From positions 62,001 through 126,000 of the forward strand of contig NZ_JAGEKR010000010.1 of NCBI RefSeq assembly GCF_017565405.1: a DNA stretch of 64,000 nt, given 5' to 3'. The translations under genes were made by a program, and so were the position numbers. Positions 3,874 through 33,916 of the stretch are shown here, piece after piece. Numbering within the stretch: the stretch's first letter is position 1; the number at the start of each line of letters is the position of its first letter. The stretch is from Allobranchiibius sp. CTAmp26. Its GTDB lineage: Bacteria; Actinomycetota; Actinomycetes; Actinomycetales; Dermatophilaceae. The notes below the pieces were generated by a model that did no database searches, was not told where the DNA came from, and worked only from the letters and a program-made list of their open reading frames with translations.

Positions 3874-4065
3874 TCAAGACGATCGTCGACTTTGACGTCG
3901 GCGTGCCAGGAACTCCATCGCGAGCGTCCACAGAATGCTCGAAATGACAGCAGCGACAATCGCCTGGGCAATCGGCTGGTGAAATATCCCGATATCGATC
4001 GCCAGCAAGATCGTCGCAAATAGCAGGCCGGACAGTACTTCGTGCCCCCGACCCTGGACAGGCAT
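3874..4065 (-). CDS. Small two-helix membrane protein (hypothetical)
   Basis: This is a 63-residue reading frame with two hydrophobic stretches, LLFATILLAIDIGIF and AIVAAVISSILWTLAMEF, ending in a basic tail ARRRQSRRSS. That is the arrangement of a small hairpin membrane protein with positive residues inside. It is convergent with the DUF222/HNH gene and on the same strand as the DivIVA-like gene that follows at higher coordinates. No family is recognised. Alternative frames of this interval give poorer proteins. Real coding is plausible but not certain. Confidence 0.42.
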   Translation of the reverse strand: MPVQGRGHEVLSGLLFATILLAIDIGIFHQPIAQAIVAAVISSILWTLAMEFLARRRQSRRSS

Positions 4066-4108
4066 TCGCCAGTACGGCGATCACCGCCATGCTGTCGTCG
4101 CCGCGGGA

Positions 4109-4678
4109 TCAGTGCAGGATCGGGCGGATCGTGCCGAGTTGGTCGAGGAAGACGTCGACCGCGATCGCGTCGTAACCACCCCGGCCGCGCTTGGGCGGAT
4201 AGAAGCGCACCGTCTCGATCCTGGGCAGCTCCTCACCCTTCGCCATGGCGAGCAGCACCTGGTCGAGGAACGCGTCGACCTCACCCTCGTCGTACGCGCG
4301 GGACCCGGTGCGCCGGGCGAAGCAGATCTCCCTCACCCAGTCCTGCTGTTTGACGGTCCACTCCCGGCGGCCGCTACGGCCGTCCGCAGCGGCCGGCTGG
4401 GACGGGTTGGGCGGCGGCGAGGCCAGATCGAAGTCGTGCTGCCACGCCGCGACGTGTGCGAGCAGCGCATCGACCGCCTCGGGGGTGTAACCCTCGCGCA
4501 ACCGCGCCCGGCGCAGGGCGAGCGTGGACACCTGCGGCACCTGCCGCTGCTGGCGCATCAGGATCGCGATACGGGCCAGCTGCCGGTCGACGTCCTCGAC
4601 GCTGTAGCCGCCCCGTTGGCGTGGCAACCGCGCGGCGCGCACGGTGTCCACGTGCGTGGACGTCCACGGTGTGCTCAT
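4109..4678 (-). CDS. DivIVA-like repeat protein
   Basis: The 189-residue protein contains four short segments resembling the N-terminal DivIVA membrane-binding motif: GGYSVEDVDRQLARI, EGYTPEAVDALLAHV, SRAYDEGEVDAFLDQVL and GGYDAIAVDVFLDQL. Each has the Gly-Tyr...Val-Asp...Leu pattern. No long coiled coil follows, so it is not a canonical DivIVA/Wag31 polar scaffold. ATG 4676-4678 was chosen because it is preceded by GGAGTGGGGAGC, a good ribosome site; a longer GTG start at 4723 is possible. It is divergent from galE. A role near the membrane or cell pole is an inference. Confidence 0.75.
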   Translation of the reverse strand: MSTPWTSTHVDTVRAARLPRQRGGYSVEDVDRQLARIAILMRQQRQVPQVSTLALRRARLREGYTPEAVDALLAHVAAWQHDFDLASPPPNPSQPAAADGRSGRREWTVKQQDWVREICFARRTGSRAYDEGEVDAFLDQVLLAMAKGEELPRIETVRFYPPKRGRGGYDAIAVDVFLDQLGTIRPILH

Positions 4679-4753
4679 GCTCCCCACTCCACTGCTGCTG
4701 TGCTCCTCAGGACCCACCGACACCCTCGCATGCTGCCCGTAGGATCGCCTTCC

Positions 4754-5776
4754 ATGCGCGTTCTCGTTTCCGGCGGCGCGGGTTACATCGGCTCACACAC
4801 CGCCATCAATCTGCTCGCCCACGGCCATGATGTCGTGCTCGCCGACGATTTTGCCAACAGCAAACCGTCAGCCGTCGACCGGCTCGAGCAGGTGAGCGGC
4901 AAGCACGTCCCCCTGCACGCGATCGATCTGTGCGACGCCGACAAGACCGACCAGATCTTCGCCGAGCAGCCGATCGACGCCGTCATCCACTTCGCCGGCC
5001 TCAAAGCCGTCGGCGAGAGCGTCGGCAAGCCCCTGGAGTACTACCGCAACAACCTCGACAGCACCTTCTCGCTGCTCAGCGCCATGCGCCGCCACGGTGT
5101 GCACAGGTTCGTCTTCTCGTCCTCCGCGACGGTGTACGGCGACCACGCGCCCGTCCCGTACAACGAGGAGTACCAGCCCCTCTCGGCCGCGTCGCCCTAC
5201 GGCCGCACGAAGGTGATGATCGAGCAGATCCTCACCGACACCGCTGCGGCCACCCCGGACCTGTCGGTCGCGCTGCTGCGTTACTTCAACCCGGTCGGCG
5301 CGCACCCGTCCGGCCGGATGGGCGAGGACCCGTCCGGAATCCCGAACAACCTGATGCCCTTCATCGCCCAGGTGGCGGTGGGACGGCGCGAGAAGCTCAG
5401 CATCTACGGCGGCGACTACCCCACCGCCGACGGCACCTGCGAGCGGGACTACATCCACGTCGAGGACCTCGCCGCCGGGCACGTCGCCGCGCTCGAACAC
5501 CTCGATTCGATGGCCGAACCGGTCCGCGCGTTCAATCTCGGCACCGGCACGGGCACCTCGGTGCTGCAGTTGCTGCACGCCTTCGAGCGGGCCGTCGGCC
5601 ACGAACTCCCCCACGAGATCGTCGACCGCCGCCCGGGTGACCTTCCCGCGTACTGGGCCGACCCCACCCGGGCGCACGAGGAGCTGGGGTGGACCGCCCA
5701 CCGGTCCATCGACGACATGTGCGCCGACACGTGGCGCTGGCAGTCCCAGAACCCGCAGGGTTACCCGGCGAGCTGA
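4754..5776 (+). CDS. galE: UDP-glucose 4-epimerase
   Basis: The 340-residue protein is an extended short-chain dehydrogenase. It begins MRVLVSGGAGYIGSH, the GxxGxxG NAD-binding motif, and carries SSSATVYG and the catalytic YxxxK pair in SPYGRTKVMIEQ. LLRYFNPVGAHPSG and GDYPTADGTCERDYIHVED are diagnostic GalE blocks. It interconverts UDP-glucose and UDP-galactose with bound NAD, supplying galactosyl donors for cell-envelope polymers and the Leloir pathway. Length matches the family (about 340). It is a single gene here, convergent with argS across a GC hairpin, and divergent from the DivIVA-like gene. Confidence 0.95.
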   Translation: MRVLVSGGAGYIGSHTAINLLAHGHDVVLADDFANSKPSAVDRLEQVSGKHVPLHAIDLCDADKTDQIFAEQPIDAVIHFAGLKAVGESVGKPLEYYRNNLDSTFSLLSAMRRHGVHRFVFSSSATVYGDHAPVPYNEEYQPLSAASPYGRTKVMIEQILTDTAAATPDLSVALLRYFNPVGAHPSGRMGEDPSGIPNNLMPFIAQVAVGRREKLSIYGGDYPTADGTCERDYIHVEDLAAGHVAALEHLDSMAEPVRAFNLGTGTGTSVLQLLHAFERAVGHELPHEIVDRRPGDLPAYWADPTRAHEELGWTAHRSIDDMCADTWRWQSQNPQGYPAS

Positions 5777-5796
5777 TCCGCCCGACACACAGGGTC

Positions 5797-5825
5797 GTCG
5801 CGCGCTATCTAGGGCGCGCCGCGAC
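5797..5825. terminator. GC hairpin between convergent galE and argS
   Basis: GTCGCGCGC and GCGCGCCGCGAC flank a short TATCTAG loop region, forming a strong imperfect stem. It lies between the stop codons of galE and argS, where a two-way transcription stop is expected. There is no T-tract. A closely similar core (CGCGCGCTAT then AG then GCGCGC) recurs after the tetR gene at 21613-21632. Confidence 0.5.
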
Positions 5826-5844
5826 TCCCGCTGGCGGCAGCCGG

Positions 5845-7608
5845 CTACATCTGCTCCGGCGCGGTGATGCCGAGCAGTCCCAGTCCGTCGACCAGCACCG
5901 CACGGGTCAGATGGCACAGCGCGAGGCGCGACTCGCGCACCTCGTCGTCCTCGGCCTTCACCACCGGGCACTGCTCGTAGAACGTCGAGAAGGTCTGGGC
6001 GAGATCGGACAGATAGGTGCACAGTCGGTGCGGCTCCAGGGTCTCGCCGACCTGCGCCACGACGGCACCGAAGTCGAGCAGCCGCAGAGCCAGGGTGCGC
6101 TCCGCCGGCTCACGGAGCACGATGGGTCCGACCGGCTCCACCACCCCGGCGCGAGCCAGGATCGAGCGGATCCGGGCCGTCGCGTACTGCAGGTACGGGC
6201 CCGTGTCGCCGGTCAGCGCGACCATCCGGTCCAGGTCGAACGTGTAGCCGCTGTCGTGCGCGACCGACAGGTCGGCGTACTTCAGCGCCGCGACGCCGAC
6301 CTGGTGGGAGATGACATCGCGCGTCTGAGCGTCGAGCTCCGGGCGGGAATCGGCAATCACCTCAGCCGACTTCGCGAACGCCGCGTCGACGAGACTCTGC
6401 AGCGCCACCAGATCGCCTGAGCGGGTGCGCAGGATCTTGCCGTCCGTGCCGACGACATTGCCGATCTGCACGTGGATCGGCTCGGTGCCCTCGATCCATC
6501 CCGCGAGCCGCGCTGTCTCCCAGACCATCTGGAAGTGCAGGTGCTGCGGCGCCCCGACGACGTACAGCGCCCGGTCGGCGTGCAGATCGAGTGAACGGTG
6601 CCGGATGGTGGCCAGATCCGTGGCGGGGTAGCCGTATCCGCCGTCGGACTTGCGCACGATCAACGGCAGCGGCTTGTCATCGCGGCCGACGTACCCGTCG
6701 AGGAAGACGCACAGAGCGCCCTCGCTCATGACCGCGAGGCCCTTCTCCTGCAGCGCGTCGCAGATCCCGGGCAGTTCGTCGTTGTACGACGATTCGCCCG
6801 CGATGTCGTCGTCGGTCAGCGTGATGTCGAGCTCGCCGTAGACCCGGTTGAGGTAGACCCGCGACAGCTCGAGGATCTCGCGCCACAGCCGCAGGGTGTC
6901 CTCCTCGCCGGCCTGCAGCAGGGTCACCCTGCGGCGCGACCGCGCGTCGAAATCGCCCGCGCTGCCTGCAGGTTCGGCCTTCTCGGCCGTCGTGAACTTG
7001 CCCCGCGCCGCACGGTAGAACGCGTTCGGGTCGCTCTGCAGCAGGCGAGCGCCGTCACTGTCCTCCCCCACGTCGAGCAGGTGCTCGATGAGCATCCCGA
7101 ACGGCGTACCCCAGTCGCCGAGGTGGTTCTGGCGGATCACATCGTGGCCGAGGTACTCCAGGGTGCGCACCAGGGAGTCGCCGACGACGGCGCTGCGCAG
7201 GTGGGCGACGTGCATCTCCTTGGCCGCGTTGACCGAGGAGTAGTCGACGACGACGGTCTGCCGCGGCGGTCGTACGACGCCGAAGTGGTCGTCCTCCCGC
7301 AGCGCCGTGGCTGCCCGAGCGATCCACGCCGAGGAGAAGGTGACGTTGAGGAACCCGGGGCCGGCGATCTCCACCTGCTCGACGAGGTCCCCTCGGTCCA
7401 GGTGCTCCACGATCGCCTGCGCGACCTCGCGCGGCGGGCGGCCCAGCCGCTTGCCGGCCGCCATGGCGGCGTTGACCTGCACGTCGGCACTGGTCTGACG
7501 CTTGTTGGCCGGGCGGATCACCGGGTCCGCGGCGGCCCAGTCGGCACCGAACGCGGCAGCCATCGCCTGCTGGACGCGCGGGGTGAGGGCGGCAATCGGG
7601 TCAGCCAT
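5845..7608 (-). CDS. argS: Arginyl-tRNA synthetase
   Basis: The 587-residue class I synthetase charges tRNA-Arg. The N-terminal domain (QVNAAMAAGKRLGRPPREVA) is the Arg-specific Add-1 domain. The HIGH signature appears as HVAHLRS in AAKEMHVAHLRSAVVGDS. The C-terminal anticodon-binding DALR domain contains QYATARIRSIL and ends DGLGLLGITAPEQM, the usual end of bacterial ArgRS. The KMSKS loop is degenerate, as is common for this enzyme. It starts at ATG 7606-7608. It is a housekeeping gene, convergent with galE and 30 bases downstream of the MmcQ/YjbR gene on the same strand. Confidence 0.95.
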   Translation of the reverse strand: MADPIAALTPRVQQAMAAAFGADWAAADPVIRPANKRQTSADVQVNAAMAAGKRLGRPPREVAQAIVEHLDRGDLVEQVEIAGPGFLNVTFSSAWIARAATALREDDHFGVVRPPRQTVVVDYSSVNAAKEMHVAHLRSAVVGDSLVRTLEYLGHDVIRQNHLGDWGTPFGMLIEHLLDVGEDSDGARLLQSDPNAFYRAARGKFTTAEKAEPAGSAGDFDARSRRRVTLLQAGEEDTLRLWREILELSRVYLNRVYGELDITLTDDDIAGESSYNDELPGICDALQEKGLAVMSEGALCVFLDGYVGRDDKPLPLIVRKSDGGYGYPATDLATIRHRSLDLHADRALYVVGAPQHLHFQMVWETARLAGWIEGTEPIHVQIGNVVGTDGKILRTRSGDLVALQSLVDAAFAKSAEVIADSRPELDAQTRDVISHQVGVAALKYADLSVAHDSGYTFDLDRMVALTGDTGPYLQYATARIRSILARAGVVEPVGPIVLREPAERTLALRLLDFGAVVAQVGETLEPHRLCTYLSDLAQTFSTFYEQCPVVKAEDDEVRESRLALCHLTRAVLVDGLGLLGITAPEQM

Positions 7609-25384: not shown

Positions 25385-26545
25385 GTGGTGTTTGAACGCT
25401 CGGCCCTAGAAGGCCTCAAGCAGTTCGAGCGCCGCGAGGGGCTTGATCCCGCCGGATGGCAGATAACCGGCAGATACCGCAATCCGTGGGGTCGTGTACC
25501 CATGACTGCGGGCGGGAAGTCCCTGGGTGGCGGCTCGCGCGAGTACATGGATCGGCTCCTTGCGACGCAACGACAGCCGGACCCAATGAGCCGTCGGCAC
25601 CACTACGTTCCGAGGACCTACTTGAAGCGGTGGTCGTTCGACAACCGGCGGGTGTGGAGCTTGGACACAGTCGCTGGGCGCTTACGGCCTCTGTCGGTTA
25701 ACGACGTGTGTGTGGAAGAGAACTTCTACCGCGTCATCGGTCCGGACGGGGAGGCGCACAACCGGGTGGAGGCAATGTTCGGGATTGTCGACACCGAGTT
25801 GCATCGTATACAGGCTCTATTCGACAGTCTCGACGACCCGGAAGAGCTCGAGTTTGACGACCTTATTGGCTTGGGGGTCACTGTTGCGGTCCAGCGAATA
25901 AGGACCGCACAACAGCGTCGTCTTCGATTGCAGCAGGACGCGTGGATGGTGGCACAGGACCCGGAACGATTCAGGTCCATATCCGATCCATTGAATCCAC
26001 TCCGTGTCGCGAGTATCCACACCGAACTACTCTTCACGAGCATGTGGGAGGCGGCTGACGTCATGACCACACGCTCGATCGAGGTGTGGGATGACCCCCG
26101 CGGCCGGTTCTGGACCTGCGATGCCCAAGTTCTGGTGCCGTTCCAAAAGAACACGAGACCGAACCTAGCGTCGGCCCGGCACATCCTGTGGCCAATCAGT
26201 CCGCGCAGAGTCGTCGCCCTGACTAACGTGCCGTCGGGCGAGAAGGCCGTCATTCATCCTGCGACGGCCAAGGAGCGTGGCCTAGTGCGGGAGGCGGTCG
26301 AGCAGGGTCGCGAGCGATGGATTTTCGCGTCAGCTGATCAGTCTGGTCACCTTCCGCGGAGGAAGAGGTTCCGTCGACGGACCCAGATCCGGTTGCGGTG
26401 TTCCCATTGGACGCCACAGGGTCGCCTTGTAGACCCGCCGGGGTGTTGCGTCGAGCAGGCTGAGGGTTTCAGCGCCGGCCCGGATGTCGCTCTGTGCAAC
26501 CAAGGCTTGCATGTCGACGCACCGTCTATGTGGGATTACGGCTGA
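25385..26545 (+). CDS. DUF4238 domain protein
   Basis: The protein is up to 386 residues. A conserved N-terminal block RRHHYVPRTYLKRWSFDN (near residue 69) is the DUF4238 signature, followed by SLDTVAGRLRPLSVNDVCVEENFY. The middle contains HTELLFTSMWEAADVMTTR and WDDPRGRFWTCDAQVLVP. DUF4238 has no established function; members often lie in defence or mobile islands. The start is uncertain: GTG 25385, ATG 25502 or ATG 25588. The last 60 residues are Arg/Cys-rich and unlike the rest. Codon use is less G/C-biased than in the genes upstream, suggesting transfer. Confidence 0.72.
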   Translation: MVFERSALEGLKQFERREGLDPAGWQITGRYRNPWGRVPMTAGGKSLGGGSREYMDRLLATQRQPDPMSRRHHYVPRTYLKRWSFDNRRVWSLDTVAGRLRPLSVNDVCVEENFYRVIGPDGEAHNRVEAMFGIVDTELHRIQALFDSLDDPEELEFDDLIGLGVTVAVQRIRTAQQRRLRLQQDAWMVAQDPERFRSISDPLNPLRVASIHTELLFTSMWEAADVMTTRSIEVWDDPRGRFWTCDAQVLVPFQKNTRPNLASARHILWPISPRRVVALTNVPSGEKAVIHPATAKERGLVREAVEQGRERWIFASADQSGHLPRRKRFRRRTQIRLRCSHWTPQGRLVDPPGCCVEQAEGFSAGPDVALCNQGLHVDAPSMWDYG

Positions 26546-26732: not shown

Positions 26733-27800
26733 GTGACCGACGAGCCGCAACCAAGAGTGCCCCCAGTGCTTCCCACGTTGGCATCAGCTGGCTACGAGCG
26801 CCGCCGCCATGGCGCCCTTCGCGTCGCGCTCTGGGACACCGACTACCTACTGAATCAGGTGCGGGCCAGCACGGCGCCCCTTACATCGGTCCGTGCAGGG
26901 TTCTCAGGTGTTCAGCTTAGGCAATACGCATCGCATCATGTTCTGACCGAGCTCTATCGTGACGACGGTCACGGCCATCCGACTAAGTGGCACAAGTTGA
27001 GCGAACAGCATGAAGCGAGCAGCGCACCGGCACCGCCCGACATCTTTCGCGCTGCCTTCGAGACAAAGTTCTTGCCAGGGATCAGCTTCGTCGAGATGGG
27101 CGATCTGTTCGCCGACCACCCGCTGGCTCTCGCCGTTGGTGCTGTACGCAACGGCAAGGGCGCCAGTGACATCCCAACGGCTCAACTGGCCGTGCTCCTG
27201 TCGCGGCTGCGGCCGGTCGCGTACTCCCACGACGAACACCTGTACAAGTCGAGGGTCGCTCCGCGCCCAGCAAACCTGCGGTCGGTCCAAAACGCTGAGC
27301 ACTATGTCGCACAAGGCGAGCACGTACAGCTCGGAGCCGCCGGCTTGAGCGCCGCTGCCATCGCTGGCATCGACTTCCTTGCGCGAGCCGTGGGGAGCAG
27401 ACTCGGCTCGCCAGACTGGCTAGCTCGACTGCTCTACCTCGGGGTGGGCACCGCAGCACTCTCGAGTCGGACGCGACGCGAAGCCGTCGGCCAACTGCTG
27501 TTGCCCATCGGGGAGTTCGTTCTTGAACAAGTCGAGCGGGGCCATGAGGCGCTCGCTCACCTTGATGAGCACGCCGTCGATGTCGCCCCAAGTGACGCCG
27601 TCGAAGCGCGGATCGCGGAGGTGATGGTTCTGCGAACATCAGAGGGCCCGCTCCTTGCTCGCGAAATTCAAGACGCCGTCGCGAGCTGTGATTCGGACCT
27701 GGACACCATCCCCTCGCTACATGAGTTGCGGGTGGTCCTCGAACGCTCCCAGTGCTTCATCGAGGGACCGCGATGGAGATACTCCCTCGGCCGCCGCTAG
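26733..27800 (+). CDS. PIN-domain protein with C-terminal extension
   Basis: The 355-residue protein has a PIN-like nuclease pattern in its first 180 residues: ALRVALWDTDYLLNQV (Asp35 or Asp37), HHVLTELYRDD (Glu73), GASDIPTAQLAVLL (Asp146) and PVAYSHDEHLYKSR (Asp167). These could be the four acidic metal ligands of a PIN RNase. A hydrophobic helical region follows (about 195-245), and the last 70 residues look like a winged helix (GPLLAREIQDAV, LHELRVVLERSQCF). GTG 26733 is preceded by AGGA at good spacing. No antitoxin gene is adjacent. Possible RNase effector; assignment by eye. Confidence 0.6.
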   Translation: MTDEPQPRVPPVLPTLASAGYERRRHGALRVALWDTDYLLNQVRASTAPLTSVRAGFSGVQLRQYASHHVLTELYRDDGHGHPTKWHKLSEQHEASSAPAPPDIFRAAFETKFLPGISFVEMGDLFADHPLALAVGAVRNGKGASDIPTAQLAVLLSRLRPVAYSHDEHLYKSRVAPRPANLRSVQNAEHYVAQGEHVQLGAAGLSAAAIAGIDFLARAVGSRLGSPDWLARLLYLGVGTAALSSRTRREAVGQLLLPIGEFVLEQVERGHEALAHLDEHAVDVAPSDAVEARIAEVMVLRTSEGPLLAREIQDAVASCDSDLDTIPSLHELRVVLERSQCFIEGPRWRYSLGRR

Positions 27801-27943
27801 GAGGGCTTCTGACGCGACGCGGACGGTACGGGGCGGAAGGAAGTGCGCTGCCCGCGATATCAGCCGGCACCTTTGCGATTGCGGGCGAGCCGTTCATTTA
27901 CTCTCACATCATCGATTCGTGCGAGCACCTTAAGGAGGCAGGG

Positions 27944-28534
27944 ATGACGGGCGTTGGCTTCATTCGGGCGTATGGCCTTCATTGGGCCTGGGACGAGGTT
28001 CATCACAGGGAGCTATGGGGCAAGCGGGGCCGCAGCATCGCGACGCATCGGTTGACAAACTTCTGGGAGCAGACTGGCATATATGTGTTGCATGATCCCT
28101 GGGGTGCATACTATGTGGGCCAGGTGGCCGAGCAAATGATTGGTGAGCGTCTGACTCAACATTCCAGGCCCAAACTCAGCAGCGGGAAGGATAATCCTCA
28201 CTATAAGAAGTGGACTCACTTCTCATGGTTTGGATTCCATGCCCTGTTGCTGCCGAGGCAACCAACTGGGATCACGCTCGTTAAGGAAAAGCGACCCGAG
28301 GCGCTACTCGCGAACATCGGGAACACGATCAACGACGTGGAAGCCCTTCTCATGATGACGCTCGGCACCACGCGCGTTGGCAACAAGCACTCGGAGAAGT
28401 TCACAAGTGCGGAGCAGTGGGATCAGGTGACCCTGCATGAACTCCCGGCAGCTATGGAGTTGGCTAAGAGGCAGGCCGTGGAAGTTAAATCCGGGGTGCG
28501 ACGATGGCCCGCAGCGTCGTCGGGACCACTGTGA
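27944..28534 (+). CDS. GIY-YIG nuclease-domain protein
   Basis: The 196-residue protein contains the GIY-YIG pattern: TGIYVLHD (residues 44-51), AYYVGQVAE (55-63), a conserved Arg in GERLTQH (Arg69) and a catalytic-type Glu in INDVEALLMM (Glu133). The HWTHFSWF-like segment (KWTHFSWFGF) is often seen in the T5orf172/GIY-YIG group. ATG 27944 is fixed by the near-perfect ribosome site TAAGGAGG at 27931-27938; upstream in-frame ATGs overlap the PIN gene. Together with that gene it may form a nuclease-containing defence or mobile unit, which is inference. Confidence 0.75.
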   Translation: MTGVGFIRAYGLHWAWDEVHHRELWGKRGRSIATHRLTNFWEQTGIYVLHDPWGAYYVGQVAEQMIGERLTQHSRPKLSSGKDNPHYKKWTHFSWFGFHALLLPRQPTGITLVKEKRPEALLANIGNTINDVEALLMMTLGTTRVGNKHSEKFTSAEQWDQVTLHELPAAMELAKRQAVEVKSGVRRWPAASSGPL

Positions 28535-28688: not shown

Positions 28689-29687
28689 CTACCGGCATTC
28701 GCCGCACACGCCGTTCTCAAGCTCGGGTGCTTGGAGGAAGCACTTGATACATGTGCCTTGGGCTCGGTCGCGTCGTGGGCAGTCGCACTCTTCGCACTTC
28801 GGGCAATACTGGCGCCCGCACGTGGTGCAGGGCCATCCGAATGCCCGACCGACGTATCCGCAGTGACAGCGGATTCCGAGGCGAGGTGCCTTTGACATCG
28901 CGGGTGGGGCATGACCTCCGTGGAAGACTTCCACTCCCCAGAGGTCAGTGGTGCTGAAGATTGCGTATAGCCGCTTCTCGGTAGCGGTGGCGCTCACGTA
29001 GTACTCCTGTATGCGCATCCATTGGTCGGCCCAGAACGTCTTTCGCGTCGCCGTTTCACCTGGTCGGAGCATCAGCAACGGATGGTTAACTGGAACTTCG
29101 GTGTTGCGCCAGGGGTAGACAGTTAGGTCGTCGCCACGCAGGGCTGAGTGAACGACCCGGCCGATGGCGCGATCAATGATGACGACCGCCCCTGAAGACA
29201 GGCGGTTCGACAGGGCGATCGCGCATGCCGGGCCACTAGCGACCGACCGGGCAACAAGCGCCTTTAGGTCTTCGCCCGTGATGGGGCCGGTGCCGACGAC
29301 GTCATCAACCATGCGCTCGGGAATGGCGAGATCAGCGGCGATCTCCTCACAGAGGCGCTCCACCTCCGAGTCCGGGTTGTCACGATCGGCCAGCCAGTTG
29401 AGCGCATCCTCGTCGCGTTCGACGAGAATGTGTCCAACCTCGTGAAGGAGTGTGAAGTTCTCTTTTTTCGAGCCAGGGGTCGGCGAGTACATGACTGTGC
29501 TGTGCTCTGCGAAGGACAGCCCGTCGCATAAGCCGCCCGCGCCTCGCTGAGAGGTGAGCGTCGGTTCCGCAACCACGGTGTAGCCCAGGCTCTTGATGCC
29601 AGTGATGGGGTGGCTGGCAATGGCGGCACGTTGTCTCGGCTTGATGGCCTCGACGAGGCGGCGTGCGTGGTCGCGACGAGTGCTCAC
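28689..29687 (-). CDS. ImmA/IrrE metallopeptidase with 12-cysteine C-terminal zinc domain
   Basis: The 332-residue protein has a gluzincin-type site HEVGH at residues 82-86 and the third ligand region LCEEIAADLAIP (about Glu115), as in ImmA/IrrE peptidases that cleave repressors. After a middle domain, the last 60 residues hold twelve Cys: 273, 275, 286, 289, 294, 297, 300, 302, 312, 315, 327 and 330. The CxC, CxxC, CxxC, CxxCxC and CxxC pairs suggest two to three zinc sites of treble-clef or RING-like type. It is the last gene of the seven-gene operon, overlapping the XRE gene by ATGA. A plausible substrate is that XRE protein; an E3-like role for the tail is speculation. Confidence 0.82.
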   Translation of the reverse strand: MSTRRDHARRLVEAIKPRQRAAIASHPITGIKSLGYTVVAEPTLTSQRGAGGLCDGLSFAEHSTVMYSPTPGSKKENFTLLHEVGHILVERDEDALNWLADRDNPDSEVERLCEEIAADLAIPERMVDDVVGTGPITGEDLKALVARSVASGPACAIALSNRLSSGAVVIIDRAIGRVVHSALRGDDLTVYPWRNTEVPVNHPLLMLRPGETATRKTFWADQWMRIQEYYVSATATEKRLYAIFSTTDLWGVEVFHGGHAPPAMSKAPRLGIRCHCGYVGRAFGWPCTTCGRQYCPKCEECDCPRRDRAQGTCIKCFLQAPELENGVCGECR

Positions 29688-30385
29688 GCCGGGTCCTGGA
29701 AATTGGGCAGGTTTTTGAGGTGCTGAAGGATCGCCAGGAGTGTCTGGGGTGTCGCGGATGTGGCGTTGCGTTTGCCAGCGGTGGCAAGCAGTCGTTTTGA
29801 ATGTTCAGCGAGTCGTTCGACGGGCACGTTACTTTCCCGGGACCATTCATCCAGGAACGCGGCGATGATCGCGTCGTCGAAGAGGACGTCGAGGGTATGA
29901 GCCGGCCGCGTGATGGCCGTCAACATCGAGTCAGCGTCGGCGCTGAGGATTTCGGCGACAGCGTTGATGATTGCTGGTGGCGGATTGAGCTTGTCGCGTT
30001 CCCATGAGAAGACAGTGTTCGTGGTCACGTTCCAGCCTCGTTTGTTAAGGCGCTGTGCCAGGTCGCCGACAGTGAGGCCTACTGACTTTCGGATGGCGGC
30101 GAGCTGGCGGCCGTTGATGAGAACTGCCGGATCTTCCACGAGGCCAAGCATCTGGGCGATCGGGTCATCTATTCGAACTGGTGCCGGTCCGCTTTGGTCC
30201 CTCTCGGCGTCGAGCTCGGCGAGTGCTCCTGGAAGTCCAGGTGCCCACTCTGCGATGGCGGCGATCAAGTCACGTTCGTCGTCCGTGAGGTCGGCGGACG
30301 TCCGGTGCCCGGCCACTGTGTCGATCAGTGCTTCGACGAACGGGTCTGTCGCGGGCGACGTCTTCTCGTTGTTCGGGTCATTCAT
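29684..30385 (-). CDS. XRE-type helix-turn-helix regulator
   Basis: The 233-residue protein has a helix-turn-helix in the middle: QLAAIRKSVGLTVGDLAQRL, then KRGWNVTTNTVFSWER and LNPPPAIINAVAEIL (about residues 93-145). Flanking regions are acidic at the N-terminus and helical at the C-terminus (RLAEHSKRLLATAGKR). It overlaps the downstream ImmA/IrrE gene by four bases and the upstream sigma factor by eight. In known systems such as ICEBs1, a paired ImmA peptidase cleaves an XRE repressor to switch genes on; the same may apply here. Confidence 0.82.
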   Translation of the reverse strand: MNDPNNEKTSPATDPFVEALIDTVAGHRTSADLTDDERDLIAAIAEWAPGLPGALAELDAERDQSGPAPVRIDDPIAQMLGLVEDPAVLINGRQLAAIRKSVGLTVGDLAQRLNKRGWNVTTNTVFSWERDKLNPPPAIINAVAEILSADADSMLTAITRPAHTLDVLFDDAIIAAFLDEWSRESNVPVERLAEHSKRLLATAGKRNATSATPQTLLAILQHLKNLPNFQDPA

Positions 30386-30962
30386 CCTTCGTCACCTCCT
30401 CATGACACTTCTTGATGATGGTTCTGAGCTGGTCGCCGACTCCCTGACCGGTGACGCCGAGCTCTTCGCCGATCTGCTTGTTCGTCTCTCCGTTCAAGAC
30501 GTGCCGGACGATCATGACCTGCCGTTCGGTCAGGTTCTCGACAGCTGTGTTCAGTTTCTCCTGCCGCCGACGCGCGAGGTCCTCGGCCGCGACATAATCC
30601 CCGAGCGGGTCGTGATCGATAACGCGAGGTTCTTCGGGGTCACCGGGAGGGAATCGCTCCCGCGTCTTCTTCTCGCTGCGCACCAGGTCGATGCACCGGT
30701 TCAGGATCGCCCTGCGGAGGTAGGCGGGCCAGCCCTCGCCCCGGTCGGTGACCTTCCGCTCCTGGACCAGCTCGAGGAGATGGGCGAACAGCACGCCCAT
30801 CGCCTCGTCGGCTAGGTCGGGCCGCTTGCCGTCGAAGAATCGGTTCGCAACCCTGCGCAGCCACTCGTGGTGCTGCTGGTACTGGGCGGCGATGTCGGAC
30901 GGGGTGCAGACGCGCGCATCCTCACCTGGGTCATCCAGGTCGTCGGCCACCGCGTCGGTCAT
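30378..30962 (-). CDS. RNA polymerase sigma-70 family factor (ECF-like)
   Basis: The 194-residue protein has sigma region 2 (YQQHHEWLRRVANRFF, ADEAMGVLFAHLLEL, GWPAYLRRAILNRCIDLVR) and region 4 (LTERQVMIVRHVLNG, TNKQIGEELGVTGQGVGDQL). There is no region 1.1 or 3, as in ECF sigma factors. The acidic first 20 residues are extra. It overlaps the E1-like gene by four bases and the XRE gene by eight, so it is made together with the ubiquitin-like system. No anti-sigma factor is recognised nearby; the XRE or the conjugation machinery could fill that role. Confidence 0.87.
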   Translation of the reverse strand: MTDAVADDLDDPGEDARVCTPSDIAAQYQQHHEWLRRVANRFFDGKRPDLADEAMGVLFAHLLELVQERKVTDRGEGWPAYLRRAILNRCIDLVRSEKKTRERFPPGDPEEPRVIDHDPLGDYVAAEDLARRRQEKLNTAVENLTERQVMIVRHVLNGETNKQIGEELGVTGQGVGDQLRTIIKKCHEEVTKDE

Positions 30963-32653
30963 CCTTCAAGTATCGGCGATGCCCCCGACAGCACGGGTGA
31001 GTTATCGGCTCTGTCTACAGAGGAATCCGCCGCACGACCCACCTCAGTCGCCGGGGGGTCGCCGTACATCCTCCGATACCAGCGTCGGCGTACGCCGGAG
31101 TGGCAGATGCAGGTGCCGGTGCTGTCGGCGTGCGGTCGGCGCACGATGCCGGCCGGCAGGCCTGCGACGTCGAGGTCGACCCGTCGGTCAACAGTGGGAA
31201 GGCCGAGCATGTGCTTCACCAGCTCGGCGGCGATCAGGGTACCGGCGAACCAGGACACCTGTGGCGACGCCACCGCGACGACGTCGCTGTCACCGCTTGC
31301 CGCATCGGCACCGGCGTCGCCGCCCTGGGGACGCATCTCGGCTTCGGCGTATGCCTGACGGATCAGGTCGCTGAGCGGGGCGCTGACCAGAGCATCACGT
31401 CGCGGCGCGGGCACGCGGCCCGCCGTGATCGCCATGTCGACGTCGGAGGCCTCCAAGACGGCTCCGTCCTGGAGCAGAGCGAGCACCCGCGGGATCGGGA
31501 TGCCAGTGACCTGGGAGTACACGCCGGCTTGAGTGAGTGGCGGTTCAGCACGGACGAAGTCGCAGAACGGGCAGGCGAACCCGTCGGCGAACCGCTCCCA
31601 CTGCACGTGAAGTTCGGTCCCAGACACCCCGGCAGACAAGGTCGCCTTGCTGAGCACGTCGGCGACGTCGAGCCGCCCGCTAAGAGTGTCGACGCTCGAG
31701 ATCACGACGCCATGCCAACCGGGTTCCTTCTTGTTGGTATTCCAGGTGGAGACGTCCGTGTCGTGAGCCTCGGCGGTAAGCCCGAGCTGCAGGAGGCGCT
31801 TGACCATCTCCGTGGACTTCTTGCCGGTCTCGCCTCCCAACAGGGCCGGGTAACGGTACGGGTTCCGGTCGGGGTCGAACACGTCCTTGTCGACCGCGGT
31901 CACCTCCAGTGCTGCGGCCAACGCCCCAGCTACCGCCGATCCGTTCAGCATCGGCGACGATGCCGTTGCGAGCAGGGCCACCGCGCTGGTGCCGACCGAT
32001 CCGACGCCGAGGAACCCGATCCGCGCAACGTCGAACCCCGCGGTTGGGTGAGTGACCGGGAGGTCGGGGTCGTCGACTAGGCACAGACGGTGGTCGATCA
32101 GGTTGGTTTCAACCGACCCACTCACCTCCACGCCCGGGAAGCCCAGGTCGGCAAGGACCTTGATGAGGACCTGGCTGACCGCCAGGCACCCTGCGGCATG
32201 AAGCCCGAAGCCGTGGATGGCGCCGATCTCCAAAACGACTGGGTAGTCGGCGAGAACGACGTTCCAGTCACCGCCGCCGACGTAGACATCGCAGACGGGC
32301 TGGACGACGCCGAAACCGACCGAGATCTGTCGGGTGGCGGGCAGATCGGTGACGGGGCGCACCGGCGTCAGCCTGTGTAACAGGTCAGCCCACGATGCCG
32401 CCTGCCACCAGTTATTCGGCAGGCGACCGTCGCCAGACGAATCGACGACGACGACGCGCGGCACCAGCCGGGCAATCATGGTCACGAACGCCGCGACAGC
32501 GACGCGCGCAGCATCATTGGCGTCCGCTGCCACGGCCACGCACACTTCGGTCTCATCGAGACGGTGCAGAACCTGGATAGCCGACTCCTGCGGACCGCCG
32601 ACGGTCTGGCTTCCGAGGAGCCGCAGCCGCGGGTCCTCGACCCAGGAGTTCAC
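30959..32653 (-). CDS. ThiF/E1-like activating enzyme
   Basis: The 564-residue protein contains a ThiF/E1 adenylation domain from about residue 208: ARIGFLGVGSVGTSAVALL (nucleotide loop 216-221), VTAVDKDVFDPDRNPYRY (Asp255/257, Asn264), GKKSTEMVKRLL (Lys278/279) and VVISSVDTLSGR. Zinc ligands are probably CPFC (361-364) and CIC (515-517). The 200 residues before it form an unassigned domain, as in several bacterial E1-like fusions. It would adenylate the C-terminus of the ubiquitin-like protein encoded three genes upstream. A catalytic thioester cysteine cannot be singled out. It overlaps its neighbours by four bases on each side. Confidence 0.82.
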   Translation of the reverse strand: MNSWVEDPRLRLLGSQTVGGPQESAIQVLHRLDETEVCVAVAADANDAARVAVAAFVTMIARLVPRVVVVDSSGDGRLPNNWWQAASWADLLHRLTPVRPVTDLPATRQISVGFGVVQPVCDVYVGGGDWNVVLADYPVVLEIGAIHGFGLHAAGCLAVSQVLIKVLADLGFPGVEVSGSVETNLIDHRLCLVDDPDLPVTHPTAGFDVARIGFLGVGSVGTSAVALLATASSPMLNGSAVAGALAAALEVTAVDKDVFDPDRNPYRYPALLGGETGKKSTEMVKRLLQLGLTAEAHDTDVSTWNTNKKEPGWHGVVISSVDTLSGRLDVADVLSKATLSAGVSGTELHVQWERFADGFACPFCDFVRAEPPLTQAGVYSQVTGIPIPRVLALLQDGAVLEASDVDMAITAGRVPAPRRDALVSAPLSDLIRQAYAEAEMRPQGGDAGADAASGDSDVVAVASPQVSWFAGTLIAAELVKHMLGLPTVDRRVDLDVAGLPAGIVRRPHADSTGTCICHSGVRRRWYRRMYGDPPATEVGRAADSSVDRADNSPVLSGASPILEG

Positions 32654-33162
32654 GACGGCTCCTCAGCGACGATCCAGCGGTCGCGATCCGGTCCAGCCAT
32701 CAGCTCTTTCCAGGACCCGTCGCAGAATTGGTAGACGGCGCATGCGTCCAGGCCGCGCCGCAGGCCCAGCCCGAAGAACGGAACGACGATCGAGATGCCG
32801 CCCTGAAACGAGATGACCGGGTTAACGTCGTCGGCGGCAGAGTGGAACGCATCGCCGGGGTGGCTGTGGATGCGCGCCACGTACAAGTCGTCGGGGCCCA
32901 CCGCGAGGGCGAGGTCCATCTGACCTCCCCGGGGAACCTCTACGTTGACGTTTCCGTGGGCGTCGCGGTGCGCGTTCTGCCGTGGGACGACGAGCTCAAG
33001 GCCGGTGCCCTTTTTGATCATGGCGGTGCCTTCGAGGCCGAAGGTGCCGCGGTGCTCGAAGAAGGTGCGCGCGTCCTGGAGGACGTTCGAGGTCAGCACC
33101 AATGGTGCCTCTTGGGTCGGCGGCGTCGTTGAAGGTGGCGGAGACCTGTGGTGGTTACGCAT
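32650..33162 (-). CDS. JAMM/MPN (Mov34-type) metallopeptidase
   Basis: The 170-residue protein has the JAMM zinc site: Glu44 in FGLEGTAMI, and IHSHPGDAFHSAADD giving His99, His101, Ser108 and Asp111. The spacing between HSHP and Ser is five, one less than in many JAMM proteins. Such enzymes cleave ubiquitin-like proteins from precursors or conjugates. The first 25 residues are Pro/Thr-rich. It overlaps the E1-like gene by four bases (ATGA) and the upstream E2-like gene by eight, so translation is coupled. Confidence 0.85.
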   Translation of the reverse strand: MRNHHRSPPPSTTPPTQEAPLVLTSNVLQDARTFFEHRGTFGLEGTAMIKKGTGLELVVPRQNAHRDAHGNVNVEVPRGGQMDLALAVGPDDLYVARIHSHPGDAFHSAADDVNPVISFQGGISIVVPFFGLGLRRGLDACAVYQFCDGSWKELMAGPDRDRWIVAEEPS

Positions 33163-33574
33163 GGATGCCTGCCTTCCGGAGCAGGGATTCGATCAAGGAG
33201 TCGAGCCGCATGCTGAAGCGGTGGGAGTCCCAGCGCTCGGTGAAGTGGCTCTCGTGGGCGTAGTAGCCGCGCGTGCCGCTGACGCACACGAACGGAACGC
33301 CAAGGCTGGGATGTATCCCGAGCGGGAAGCCAGGAATCCACCGCTCCAACGCCAGAATCTGGCCACCGTCGTCGACCAGTGTCGCGTCGAACGGTTCGGA
33401 GTCGTAGCGTGCGCCGTCCAGCAGCAGGTTCCATTCGCCGTCGTCACGGGTCAGGGTCATCAAGATGTTCGACCCGTCCCGGTGGAGATCGCCGGCCAGG
33501 TCGCCTAGCTTCAAGCGGGCCCGGCCGACCTCCGCGTTGAGGAGGTCGGCCAGGACAGCCGGGTGGAGAGCCAC
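33155..33574 (-). CDS. Putative E2-like (UBC-fold) protein of the ubiquitin-like operon
   Basis: The 139-residue protein is not clearly similar to a named family by eye. Its second half, RWIPGFPLGIHPSLGVPFVC then SG, a Tyr-Tyr-x-His-Glu stretch, RWDSHRFSM and LDSLIESLLRKAG, follows the order seen in E2 enzymes: Pro-rich strand, HP(N/S), a Cys (Cys97) where the E2 catalytic cysteine lies, Trp, then helices. It sits exactly where an E2 is expected, between the ubiquitin-like and JAMM genes. The gap to the ubiquitin-like stop is six bases, and the JAMM gene overlaps by eight. Assignment is inference. Confidence 0.6.
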   Translation of the reverse strand: MALHPAVLADLLNAEVGRARLKLGDLAGDLHRDGSNILMTLTRDDGEWNLLLDGARYDSEPFDATLVDDGGQILALERWIPGFPLGIHPSLGVPFVCVSGTRGYYAHESHFTERWDSHRFSMRLDSLIESLLRKAGIHA

Positions 33575-33580
33575 AGCCTG

Positions 33581-33916
33581 CTACTTGATGAGGGTGATGC
33601 CGGCGCCGTCGACCTGGGGCTTGCGGTTGACCAGCACCAGGACGTCGCCCTCGACGATGCCGAGGTCGCCGAAGGTCGCCGACGGGTCGAGTTCGTTGTT
33701 GGAGAACCGCGGCAGGCTCAGCGAGTAGTCGCCGACGGTCAGCCAGCCCTTGGCGATGAACCGCTTCACCTCCTTGTCGGTGGCCTCGCCGACGGTGTCG
33801 GACGGCTTGACCGTCACCTTGTCGCTGTGGCCCGCCAAGGACCGACAGATGACCTTGAATGGGTGGTCGGTGTGATCCGGCTTGGACGTCGTGTCGCTCT
33901 CGGAGTGAGTGCTCAC
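33581..33916 (-). CDS. Ubiquitin-like beta-grasp protein
   Basis: The 111-residue protein has a 19-residue polar leader and one ubiquitin-like domain: FKVICRSLAGHSDKVTVKPS (strands 1-2), DKEVKRFIAKGWL (helix), YSLSLPRF, then LDPSATFGDLGIVEGDVLVL, matching the ubiquitin loop before the last strand. The C-terminus is QVDGAGITLIK, without the usual Gly-Gly; Gly-Ala-Gly six to four residues from the end could be a processing point. GTG 33914-33916 was chosen because AAAGGAG lies seven bases upstream. It is the first gene of the operon. It is not Pup-like, since Pup is disordered and ends GGQ/E. Confidence 0.8.
   Translation of the reverse strand: MSTHSESDTTSKPDHTDHPFKVICRSLAGHSDKVTVKPSDTVGEATDKEVKRFIAKGWLTVGDYSLSLPRFSNNELDPSATFGDLGIVEGDVLVLVNRKPQVDGAGITLIK

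What the first reader, a model, noticed from the sequence alone, without database searches (positions are those of the whole stretch)
28689..33916. Seven-gene ubiquitin-like operon joined to a sigma factor, an XRE regulator and an ImmA/IrrE peptidase
Seen: seven minus-strand genes in the order ubiquitin-like, E2-like, JAMM, E1-like, sigma-70, XRE, ImmA/IrrE. Between the first two genes there is a gap of six bases; every other junction overlaps by four or eight bases, so the whole set is one coupled unit. Known: bacteria carry Ub-E1-E2-JAMM operons in several forms (CBASS accessory genes, Bil, multi-ubiquitin operons). Inference: here conjugation or its reversal may control a sigma factor, with the XRE-ImmA pair as a proteolytic switch, giving a regulated stress or anti-phage response. 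I do not recognise this exact combination as a described system.
Basis: partly seen in the sequence, partly recalled or inferred. Interest (0 to 1): 0.92.

Follow-up and report, generated by a model that had tools for sequence, protein, structure and literature searches.

The report
Ubiquitin-like defence operon with sigma switch
An actinobacterium carries a distant relative of the Bil ubiquitin-like anti-phage system in one operon with a sigma factor, a DNA-binding regulator and a protease, and those last three recur elsewhere as what looks like a portable on-switch beside different immune operons.

Summary
The seven genes and their junctions are as described. The first four form a divergent Bil (bacterial ISG15-like) core: E1, E2 and JAMM align by profile with the Bil families; the Ubl match is weak. 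One relative (MAG CAN_BIN24, about 75% identity) keeps six genes, their order and overlaps; its contig ends before the Ubl. In both, the E1 has Ala at the BilD catalytic cysteine. The last three genes are separable: the same sigma-XRE-ImmA trio, with a CapP-like, Cys-tailed ImmA, occurs beside other Ub-type operons, and a second lineage with such an ImmA sits beside multi-ubiquitin, ThiF/DUF6527 and CBASS operons; half of the further loci show no recognised immune core. In five trios a near-identical two-block site, GCTAAC-N15-CTCGACTAC, stands before the sigma gene and again before the payload, so there sigma probably drives the payload. The window lacks this site. Best reading: a damage- or infection-triggered ImmA cleaves XRE, freeing a dedicated sigma factor that switches on a Bil-type system. 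New variant of known kinds.

The parts
33581..33916 (-). Ubiquitin-like protein, 111 aa (candidate BilA); C-terminus QVDGAGITLIK, i.e. GAG plus a 5-residue tail that would need trimming
   Evidence: The only four Pfam hits up to E 1 are beta-grasp families, all below cut-off, at residues 67-99 (YukD 0.024, DUF2604 0.028, Rad60-SLD 0.029, ubiquitin 0.1). Against the BilA/DUF2604 alignment probability 8.9. Fold prediction failed. Weakest assignment of the set.
33155..33574 (-). E2-like protein, 139 aa, BilB/Metal_CEHH family; C97 and H110 match catalytic C138 and H151 of BilB; E144 and H146 are G103 and Y105
   Evidence: hhalign against the CEHH family probability 96.8, E 2e-10; that family's profile, window included, hits PDB 8tyz_C E2(BilB) E 1.4e-78, but the window protein alone only E 0.88. 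Motif roles from passages of PMC11354881. Residues.
32650..33162 (-). JAMM/JAB isopeptidase, 170 aa, BilC type; E44, H99, H101, S108, D111 kept
   Evidence: PADLOC BilC E 4.3e-9; hhalign E 2e-17 to a family whose profile hits 8tyx_B DUB(BilC) E 1.3e-73. Same residues in L004.
30959..32653 (-). E1-like protein, 564 aa, BilD type; GxGxxG 216-221, D255, N264, R267, D322, R327 and C361/C364/C515/C517 kept; catalytic Cys417 of BilD is A436
   Evidence: Profile of window+L004 alone hits 8tyz_A E1(BilD) E 2.5e-11; hhalign 463 columns E 4e-21; alignment A12; Cys positions.
30378..30962 (-). Sigma-70 family (ECF-like) sigma factor, 194 aa
   Evidence: TIGR02937 57.3 bits over cut-off 42.9; Sigma70_r2 over cut-off.
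29684..30385 (-). XRE-type HTH regulator, 233 aa, HTH about 92-150, conserved DPxAxMLGxVxDP-like motif before it
   Evidence: HTH_3 23.1 bits at cut-off 23; phmmer relatives in L034, L035, L036; alignment A17.
28689..29687 (-). ImmA/IrrE (M78) metallopeptidase, 332 aa, HEVGH at 82-86, Cys-rich C-terminal tail (12 Cys from 274 to 331)
   Evidence: Peptidase_M78 over cut-off; PADLOC capP E 1.2e-12; profile A14 hits IrrE 8slm E 3e-17 and CapP 7t5t E 7e-6; alignment A14; Cys count.

Best explanation
A two-part anti-phage or stress operon. Part one is a divergent Bil core: the JAMM trims the Ubl to end in GAG, the E1 adenylates it, the E2 (C97) carries it to targets, the JAMM can remove it. Part two is a self-contained controller: the XRE protein keeps the operon or the sigma factor off; the CapP-like ImmA, activated by a damage signal such as single-stranded DNA, cleaves XRE; the sigma factor then directs RNA polymerase to its own promoter and to the immune genes, giving positive feedback. 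Here the core lies upstream of the controller in what looks like one transcript, so core and switch would rise together. Shown: gene content, homology, linkage of six genes in two species, recurrence of the trio, repeated site in five relatives. Inferred: cleavage of XRE, ssDNA sensing, sigma driving the core in this window, conjugation, defence.
For: Core. Linkage. Regulators found without regard to Ub genes: ImmA queries gave 16 further distinct loci with a Cys-tailed ImmA or ImmA fragment; 8 of 16 carry next to it a Ub-type E1 (L035, L037, L048, L049, L063) or a CBASS cyclase-E2-TM set (L038, L040, L050). Sigma-XRE-ImmA in that order in 7 of 8 loci of the window's own lineage (window, L004, L034, L035, L036, L062, L063; L067 is a fragment): sigma over the TIGR02937 cut-off in window, L034, L035, L036, L063, by homology in L004 and L062. 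Two copies of GCTAAC-N15-CTCGACTAC (0-2 mismatches) in 5 of 5 intact relatives, one before sigma, one between ImmA and payload. CapH+CapP and ssDNA: passages of PMC13373217.
Against: The site is not found near the window's operon: best score upstream of the Ubl is 6 mismatches, background level, and 0 in its genome at up to 1 mismatch. The window's sigma is 22-25% and its XRE 27-31% identical to the relatives beyond L004. The E1 lacks the catalytic cysteine. 8 of the 16 further loci have no recognised immune core. Only one relative of the whole unit was found, with the Ubl cut off. In the second lineage the gene in the sigma position has no convincing Pfam, NCBIfam or PDB match.
Confidence: 0.62

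Rival explanations
1. The core has lost ordinary Ubl conjugation: an E1 without its catalytic cysteine only adenylates the Ubl, or passes it straight from the adenylate to the E2 or another acceptor, and the operon is a signalling or sulfur-transfer variant.
For: The BilD Cys417 position is Ala in window and L004; the window E1 has no other Cys between C364 and C515. CEHH structural E and H replaced.
Against: Adenylation motifs, E2 C97/H110 and the full JAMM set are kept in both species, and the genes are under purifying selection; a JAMM is of use mainly if an isopeptide is made or a tail is trimmed (inference).
Confidence: 0.22
2. A sub-version of the best explanation: XRE is an anti-sigma factor rather than a DNA-binding repressor; ImmA frees sigma by cutting XRE bound to it.
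For: Sigma and XRE frames overlap by 4 or 8 bases in 7 of 7 intact loci of the window's lineage; a sigma factor needs holding off (inference).
Against: XRE has an HTH at the Pfam cut-off; CapH is a DNA-binding repressor (passages of PMC13373217) and DdrO a repressor (start of abstract of PMC10904395).
Confidence: 0.3
3. One reading: Ubl attachment to or removal from sigma or XRE controls transcription.
For: Overlapping frames only.
Against: Related trios stand beside different Ubl systems or beside payloads without any recognised Ubl (L034, L036, L062); the promoter-like site places sigma above the payload.
Confidence: 0.07
4. The regulators are a mobile-element switch merely fused to the operon, without control over it.
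For: Variable locus: window 22.3-36.2 kb is replaced by unrelated sequence in a same-genus genome; XRE-ImmA pairs also run mobile elements (recalled).
Against: Overlapping reading frames kept over about 25% protein divergence; the trio recurs beside immune cores in different gene order.
Confidence: 0.08

Closest known systems
Bil (bacterial ISG15-like) system, BilABCD; operon type 6c of Iyer, Burroughs and Aravind 2006 (PMC1779556), prototype pNGR234a
   Same: Order Ubl-E2-JAMM-E1; E1 homologous to BilD nearly over its length; E2 of the Metal_CEHH/BilB family with catalytic C and H; JAMM with all metal and catalytic residues
   Different: E1 catalytic Cys replaced by Ala; CEHH E and first H replaced; short E2 (139 aa against 204 in 8tyz_C); Ubl hardly recognisable; controller in the same overlapping gene row
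CapH+CapP controller of CBASS, Bub, DISARM and Pycsar operons (PMC13373217 and PMC10693628, passages)
   Same: HTH protein plus ImmA-type peptidase beside immune operons; PADLOC capP is the best hit of the window ImmA
   Different: Added dedicated sigma factor; Cys-rich tail on the peptidase; controller downstream of the core in the window, upstream of the payload in the relatives
PprI/IrrE-DdrO damage switch of Deinococcus
   Same: M78 peptidase related by sequence (8slm, 3dte)
   Different: No sigma factor and a dispersed regulon (recalled)
Bub operons (multi-ubiquitin with JAB-E1; ThiF with DUF6527; equating these with Bub is recalled)
   Same: Payloads beside a tailed ImmA in L035, L037, L048, L049, L063
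   Different: Different Ubl, E2 and E1 architecture from the window core

Membership tests
Bil system | Four genes Ubl, E2, JAMM, E1 adjacent on one strand | tested here: met
   order as in L014-L017
Bil system | E1 homologous to BilD over both halves | tested here: met
   hhalign 463 columns E 4e-21; PDB 8tyz_A E 2.5e-11 over the C-terminal half
Bil system | E1 catalytic Cys (BilD Cys417) | tested here: not met
   Ala436 in window, Ala in L004; CGG present in L012-L015 and L017
Bil system | E2 CEHH motif with catalytic C and H | tested here: inconclusive
   C97 and H110 kept, E and first H not; family match
Bil system | JAMM active site | tested here: met
   E44, H99, H101, S108, D111
Bil system | Ubl of the BilA/DUF2604 family with processable Gly end | tested here: inconclusive
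   DUF2604 E 0.028, hhalign probability 8.9, GAG plus tail seen in sequence
Bil system | Ubl conjugation to phage proteins and defence | not testable with these tools
   Needs bench work
CapH+CapP controller | HTH protein next to ImmA-type peptidase with HExxH | tested here: met
CapH+CapP controller | Adjacent to an immune operon | tested here: met
   Window core; 8 of 16 further loci
CapH+CapP controller | Two-gene module without sigma factor | tested here: not met
   Sigma in 7 of 8 loci of this lineage
CapH+CapP controller | ssDNA-activated cleavage of the HTH protein | not testable with these tools
   Needs purified proteins

The most novel reading that the evidence does not exclude
Sigma-XRE-ImmA is a further class of portable immune controller in actinobacteria, the first with its own dedicated sigma factor and promoter pair, shared by Bil-like, other Ub-type and (in a diverged form) CBASS operons; and the window's Bil core works with an E1 that has no catalytic cysteine, handing the Ubl from the adenylate directly to the E2.
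Probability: 0.4. Interest if true: 0.85.

Novelty: new variant of a known kind. Interest (0 to 1): 0.74.

Why it matters
How bacteria keep self-damaging immune operons silent and switch them on is an open question; the controllers described so far (CapW, CapH+CapP, CapK+CapS; PMC13373217, passages) act by lifting repression. A sigma factor locked to immune payloads by its own promoter pair would be a positive-feedback switch, would predict its targets from DNA sequence, and would give a way to find unknown payloads (the 303-aa and 237-aa proteins of L034 and L062). A Bil-type E1 without its cysteine would test how far the E1 thioester step is dispensable.

Tried and rejected
E1 tblastn in 248 order genomes, 396 phylum genomes, plasmids, phages and, by peptide patterns, viral contigs: only the own copy and two short matches at E 5e-4 and 7e-4 (L002, L003), whose surroundings show no such operon and which I judged chance. 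The profile of window+L004 in 394 class genomes gave the window, the same MAG again (G668 = L004, same coordinates) and two marginal matches (L007, L008; E about 0.009) that I did not read. The E2-family profile A13 in 246 class genomes gave only these two.

I first took the E2-like gene to be a metal-binding protein and the E1 N-terminus to be the E2, following the Pfam names Metal_CEHH and Prok-E2_C and the 2006 paper; the solved Bil structures showed that the CEHH protein is the E2, so I dropped that.

A dyad TTCGA-N16-TGCCG shared by five payload-side regions of the second lineage lies inside the conserved end of the ImmA coding sequence and was rejected. The GCTAAC site does not have this fault on the payload side: it lies between ImmA and the next gene, overlapping the ImmA stop by 5 bases in L035 and L063. 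On the sigma side it lies before the start codon annotated in L034, L035 and L036; in L062 I set the start by alignment and the site is inside the longest open frame. Over 759,577 bases of held loci (some overlapping) three other places match with 2 mismatches (L007, L062:3228, L080). A search for a repeated dyad in the window gave only background.

Genome-wide, the site is not enriched: at up to 1 mismatch 1 hit in G193 against 2 for the backward-read control, 3 against 0 in G829, 2 against 0 in each of three plasmids, 0 against 1 in the window's genome. Its position supports it, not its number. The resampling control used first-order Markov sequences, 100 rounds.

The control for linkage is weak: five M78 loci matched only in the peptidase part (L043-L047) have none of the cores, but the core set was drawn from the linked loci, so it can miss other cores, and L044-L047 were not read gene by gene. 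Sigma and XRE of the two lineages are joined only weakly (hhalign probability 59 and 44). Structure predictions were too poor to search, so no fold search was made. Metagenome contigs were not searched.
Full report
Observation. All seven genes are at the stated places with a 6-base gap and overlaps of 8, 4, 4, 8 and 4 bases. The genome holds one match to the E1. The window's genome is in the same class as the MAG called Actinomycetes bacterium.

A close relative. In genome contigs (84,980 species by the tool's description), scanned with six peptide patterns of the E1 core, 50 stretches matched a pattern and one was confirmed as a relative: L004, MAG CAN_BIN24, with E2, JAMM, E1, sigma, XRE and ImmA in the same order, 71-87% identical, with the same overlaps. 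The contig ends in a run of G and C before the Ubl. All six genes show dN/dS of 0.13-0.28 (my own Nei-Gojobori script; E2 over 121 codons). This scan finds close relatives only; the unit is rare in what I could search.

What the core is. Pfam places Ubl, E2 and JAMM below cut-off and finds nothing for the E1. PF14455 rang in 2 of 198 phylum genomes: L012 has Ubl, CEHH, JAMM and E1 in a row, L013 CEHH, JAMM and E1 (Ubl not identified). The rhizobial plasmid loci L014-L017 have all four; this is row 6c of PMC1779556 (one section and passages read). Profile comparison joins the window E2, E1 and JAMM to these, and the solved Bil proteins to the same families. The window+L004 E1 profile alone hits BilD. 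The Ubl stays weak. So the core is a divergent Bil core, with the Ubl assigned mostly by position.

Active sites. JAMM is intact. The E2 keeps the catalytic C and H but not the structural E and H of CEHH. The E1 keeps the adenylation motifs and the four cysteines that look like a zinc site, but has Ala at BilD Cys417 in both species (roles from passages of PMC11354881). This is the main evidence against an ordinary Bil cycle.

What the regulators are. The ImmA is closest to CapP in PADLOC and matches IrrE and CapP in the PDB, with a Cys-rich tail. I searched with ImmA only: plasmids (8, 9 and 5 records), phages (none) and class genomes (11 of 197 at E 0.001 with the two-row profile; 11 of 296 at E 1e-12 with the nine-row profile; the window and L004 genomes are in both counts). 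Leaving out the five weak, peptidase-only hits (L043-L047, used as control) and counting near-identical records once, there are 16 further loci with the tailed ImmA or a fragment of it.

Lineage A (window type) has 8 loci: window, L004, L034, L035, L036, L062, L063, L067. Seven have sigma-XRE-ImmA in that order; L067 is a fragment. Payloads: Bil core upstream (window, L004); Multi_ubiq-like Ubl (E 0.006, below cut-off), a 116-aa protein without Pfam match and a ThiF protein with a JAB-like N-terminus by eye (L035); DUF6791-ThiF with a DUF6527-like protein (L063); unknown proteins (L034, L062); an 89-aa protein that looks Cas2-like to me (L036, no Pfam match); nothing readable (L067). A small basic protein of about 51 aa follows ImmA in L034, L035, L036, L062, L063 and L067.

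Lineage B has 10 loci. Five (L037, L038, L040, L049, L050) have a long protein of unknown family in the sigma position and L048 a 59-aa remnant; next comes a protein in the XRE position (called helix-turn-helix in the L050 record, weak HTH in L038, none in L037), then ImmA (split in two frames in L048). Payloads: multi-ubiquitin, E2-like, ThiF (L037, L048); DUF3892, ThiF, DUF6527 (L049); CD-NTase, E2, TM effector (L038, L040, L050). Four (L042, L064, L065, L066) have the ImmA, a relative of the XRE-position protein in L042, L064 and L065 but not L066, and no recognised Ub or CBASS core; L065 has what looks like a TIR protein next door by eye. I do not claim that lineage B has a sigma factor: no library gives it a convincing match and profile comparison to lineage A reaches probability 59 over 54 columns only. 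In total 8 of 16 loci found through ImmA alone have a Ub-type or CBASS core; the control is small (0 of 5).

The promoter-like site. In 250 bases before sigma (before the Ubl for the window), five of six regions tested share GCTAAC-N15-CTCGACTAC (L036 with one mismatch); 100 first-order Markov resamplings gave no pair of 5-mers shared by four or five. The site appears again just after ImmA, before the payload, in the same five cassettes with 0-2 mismatches and the same spacer, and after the ImmA fragment of L067. A two-block site with fixed spacing, one before the sigma gene itself, is how ECF-type sigma factors mark their own promoters (established knowledge, recalled). The simplest reading is that the sigma factor drives both its own trio and the payload. 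The sixth region, before the window's Ubl, has no such site, which fits a sigma factor only 22-25% identical to those relatives, or another control; this remains open. Whole-record counts do not add support for the chromosomes (figures under Tried and rejected).

Setting. Window 22.3-36.2 kb is a variable stretch: a same-genus genome (G964) has about 13 kb there without BLAST similarity to it, and none of the seven proteins matched the three relatives' stretches compared. GC falls from about 0.69-0.74 to 0.59-0.68. No tRNA lies in the window.

Literature. [quoted passage not shown] The rows listed by nine paper searches (each lists at most 20) show no sigma-XRE-ImmA controller by title or start of abstract. 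The Bub structure paper and the CapP paper I asked for are not held, and no main Bil paper was listed, so absence from print is not shown.

Verdict. A new variant: a Bil-like core with a missing E1 cysteine, joined to a sigma-bearing relative of the CapH+CapP switch.

Noticed in passing
L012:5818-7578 and L013:11829-13471: Two Bil-type operons of the same phylum have a fused XRE-ImmA protein and a PIN-like protein (by eye) beside them on the other strand, with no sigma factor seen; L043 shows the same kind of fused pair with a PIN-like neighbour but no Bil core.
   Followed up: partly
L034:6118-6273, L035:9116-9271, L036:9079-9234, L063:7811-7966, L062, L067: A highly conserved basic protein of about 51 aa follows ImmA directly after the second promoter-like site; not seen in the window or L004.
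   Followed up: no
L034:6469-7380 and L062:5377-6090: Unknown 303-aa and 237-aa proteins sit where immune payloads sit in related cassettes: candidate new effectors.
   Followed up: no
L015:8265-9623: The Bil operon of Rhizobium etli p42a is followed by TIR-domain and caspase-family genes (record annotation).
   Followed up: no
L019:3433-6900: Rhizobium leguminosarum pRLN3 has multiubiquitin, metal-binding (BilB-like), JAB and ThiF genes next to an Xre/MbcA/ParS antitoxin and RES toxin pair.
   Followed up: no
window 27752-28534: Convergent 260-aa ORF beside the operon looks GIY-YIG-like by eye (TGIYVLHDPWGAYYVGQV); Pfam gave no such match.
   Followed up: no
window 25385-26545: DUF4238 protein (E 2.6e-26), a further gene of the variable stretch between a DEAD helicase and the operon.
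   Followed up: no
L020 (Natrinema plasmid) 4030-6792: Archaeal plasmid carries a JAB and ThiF pair after two small genes, one alignable with the E2 family; its E1 has a gap at the BilD Cys417 region.
   Followed up: partly
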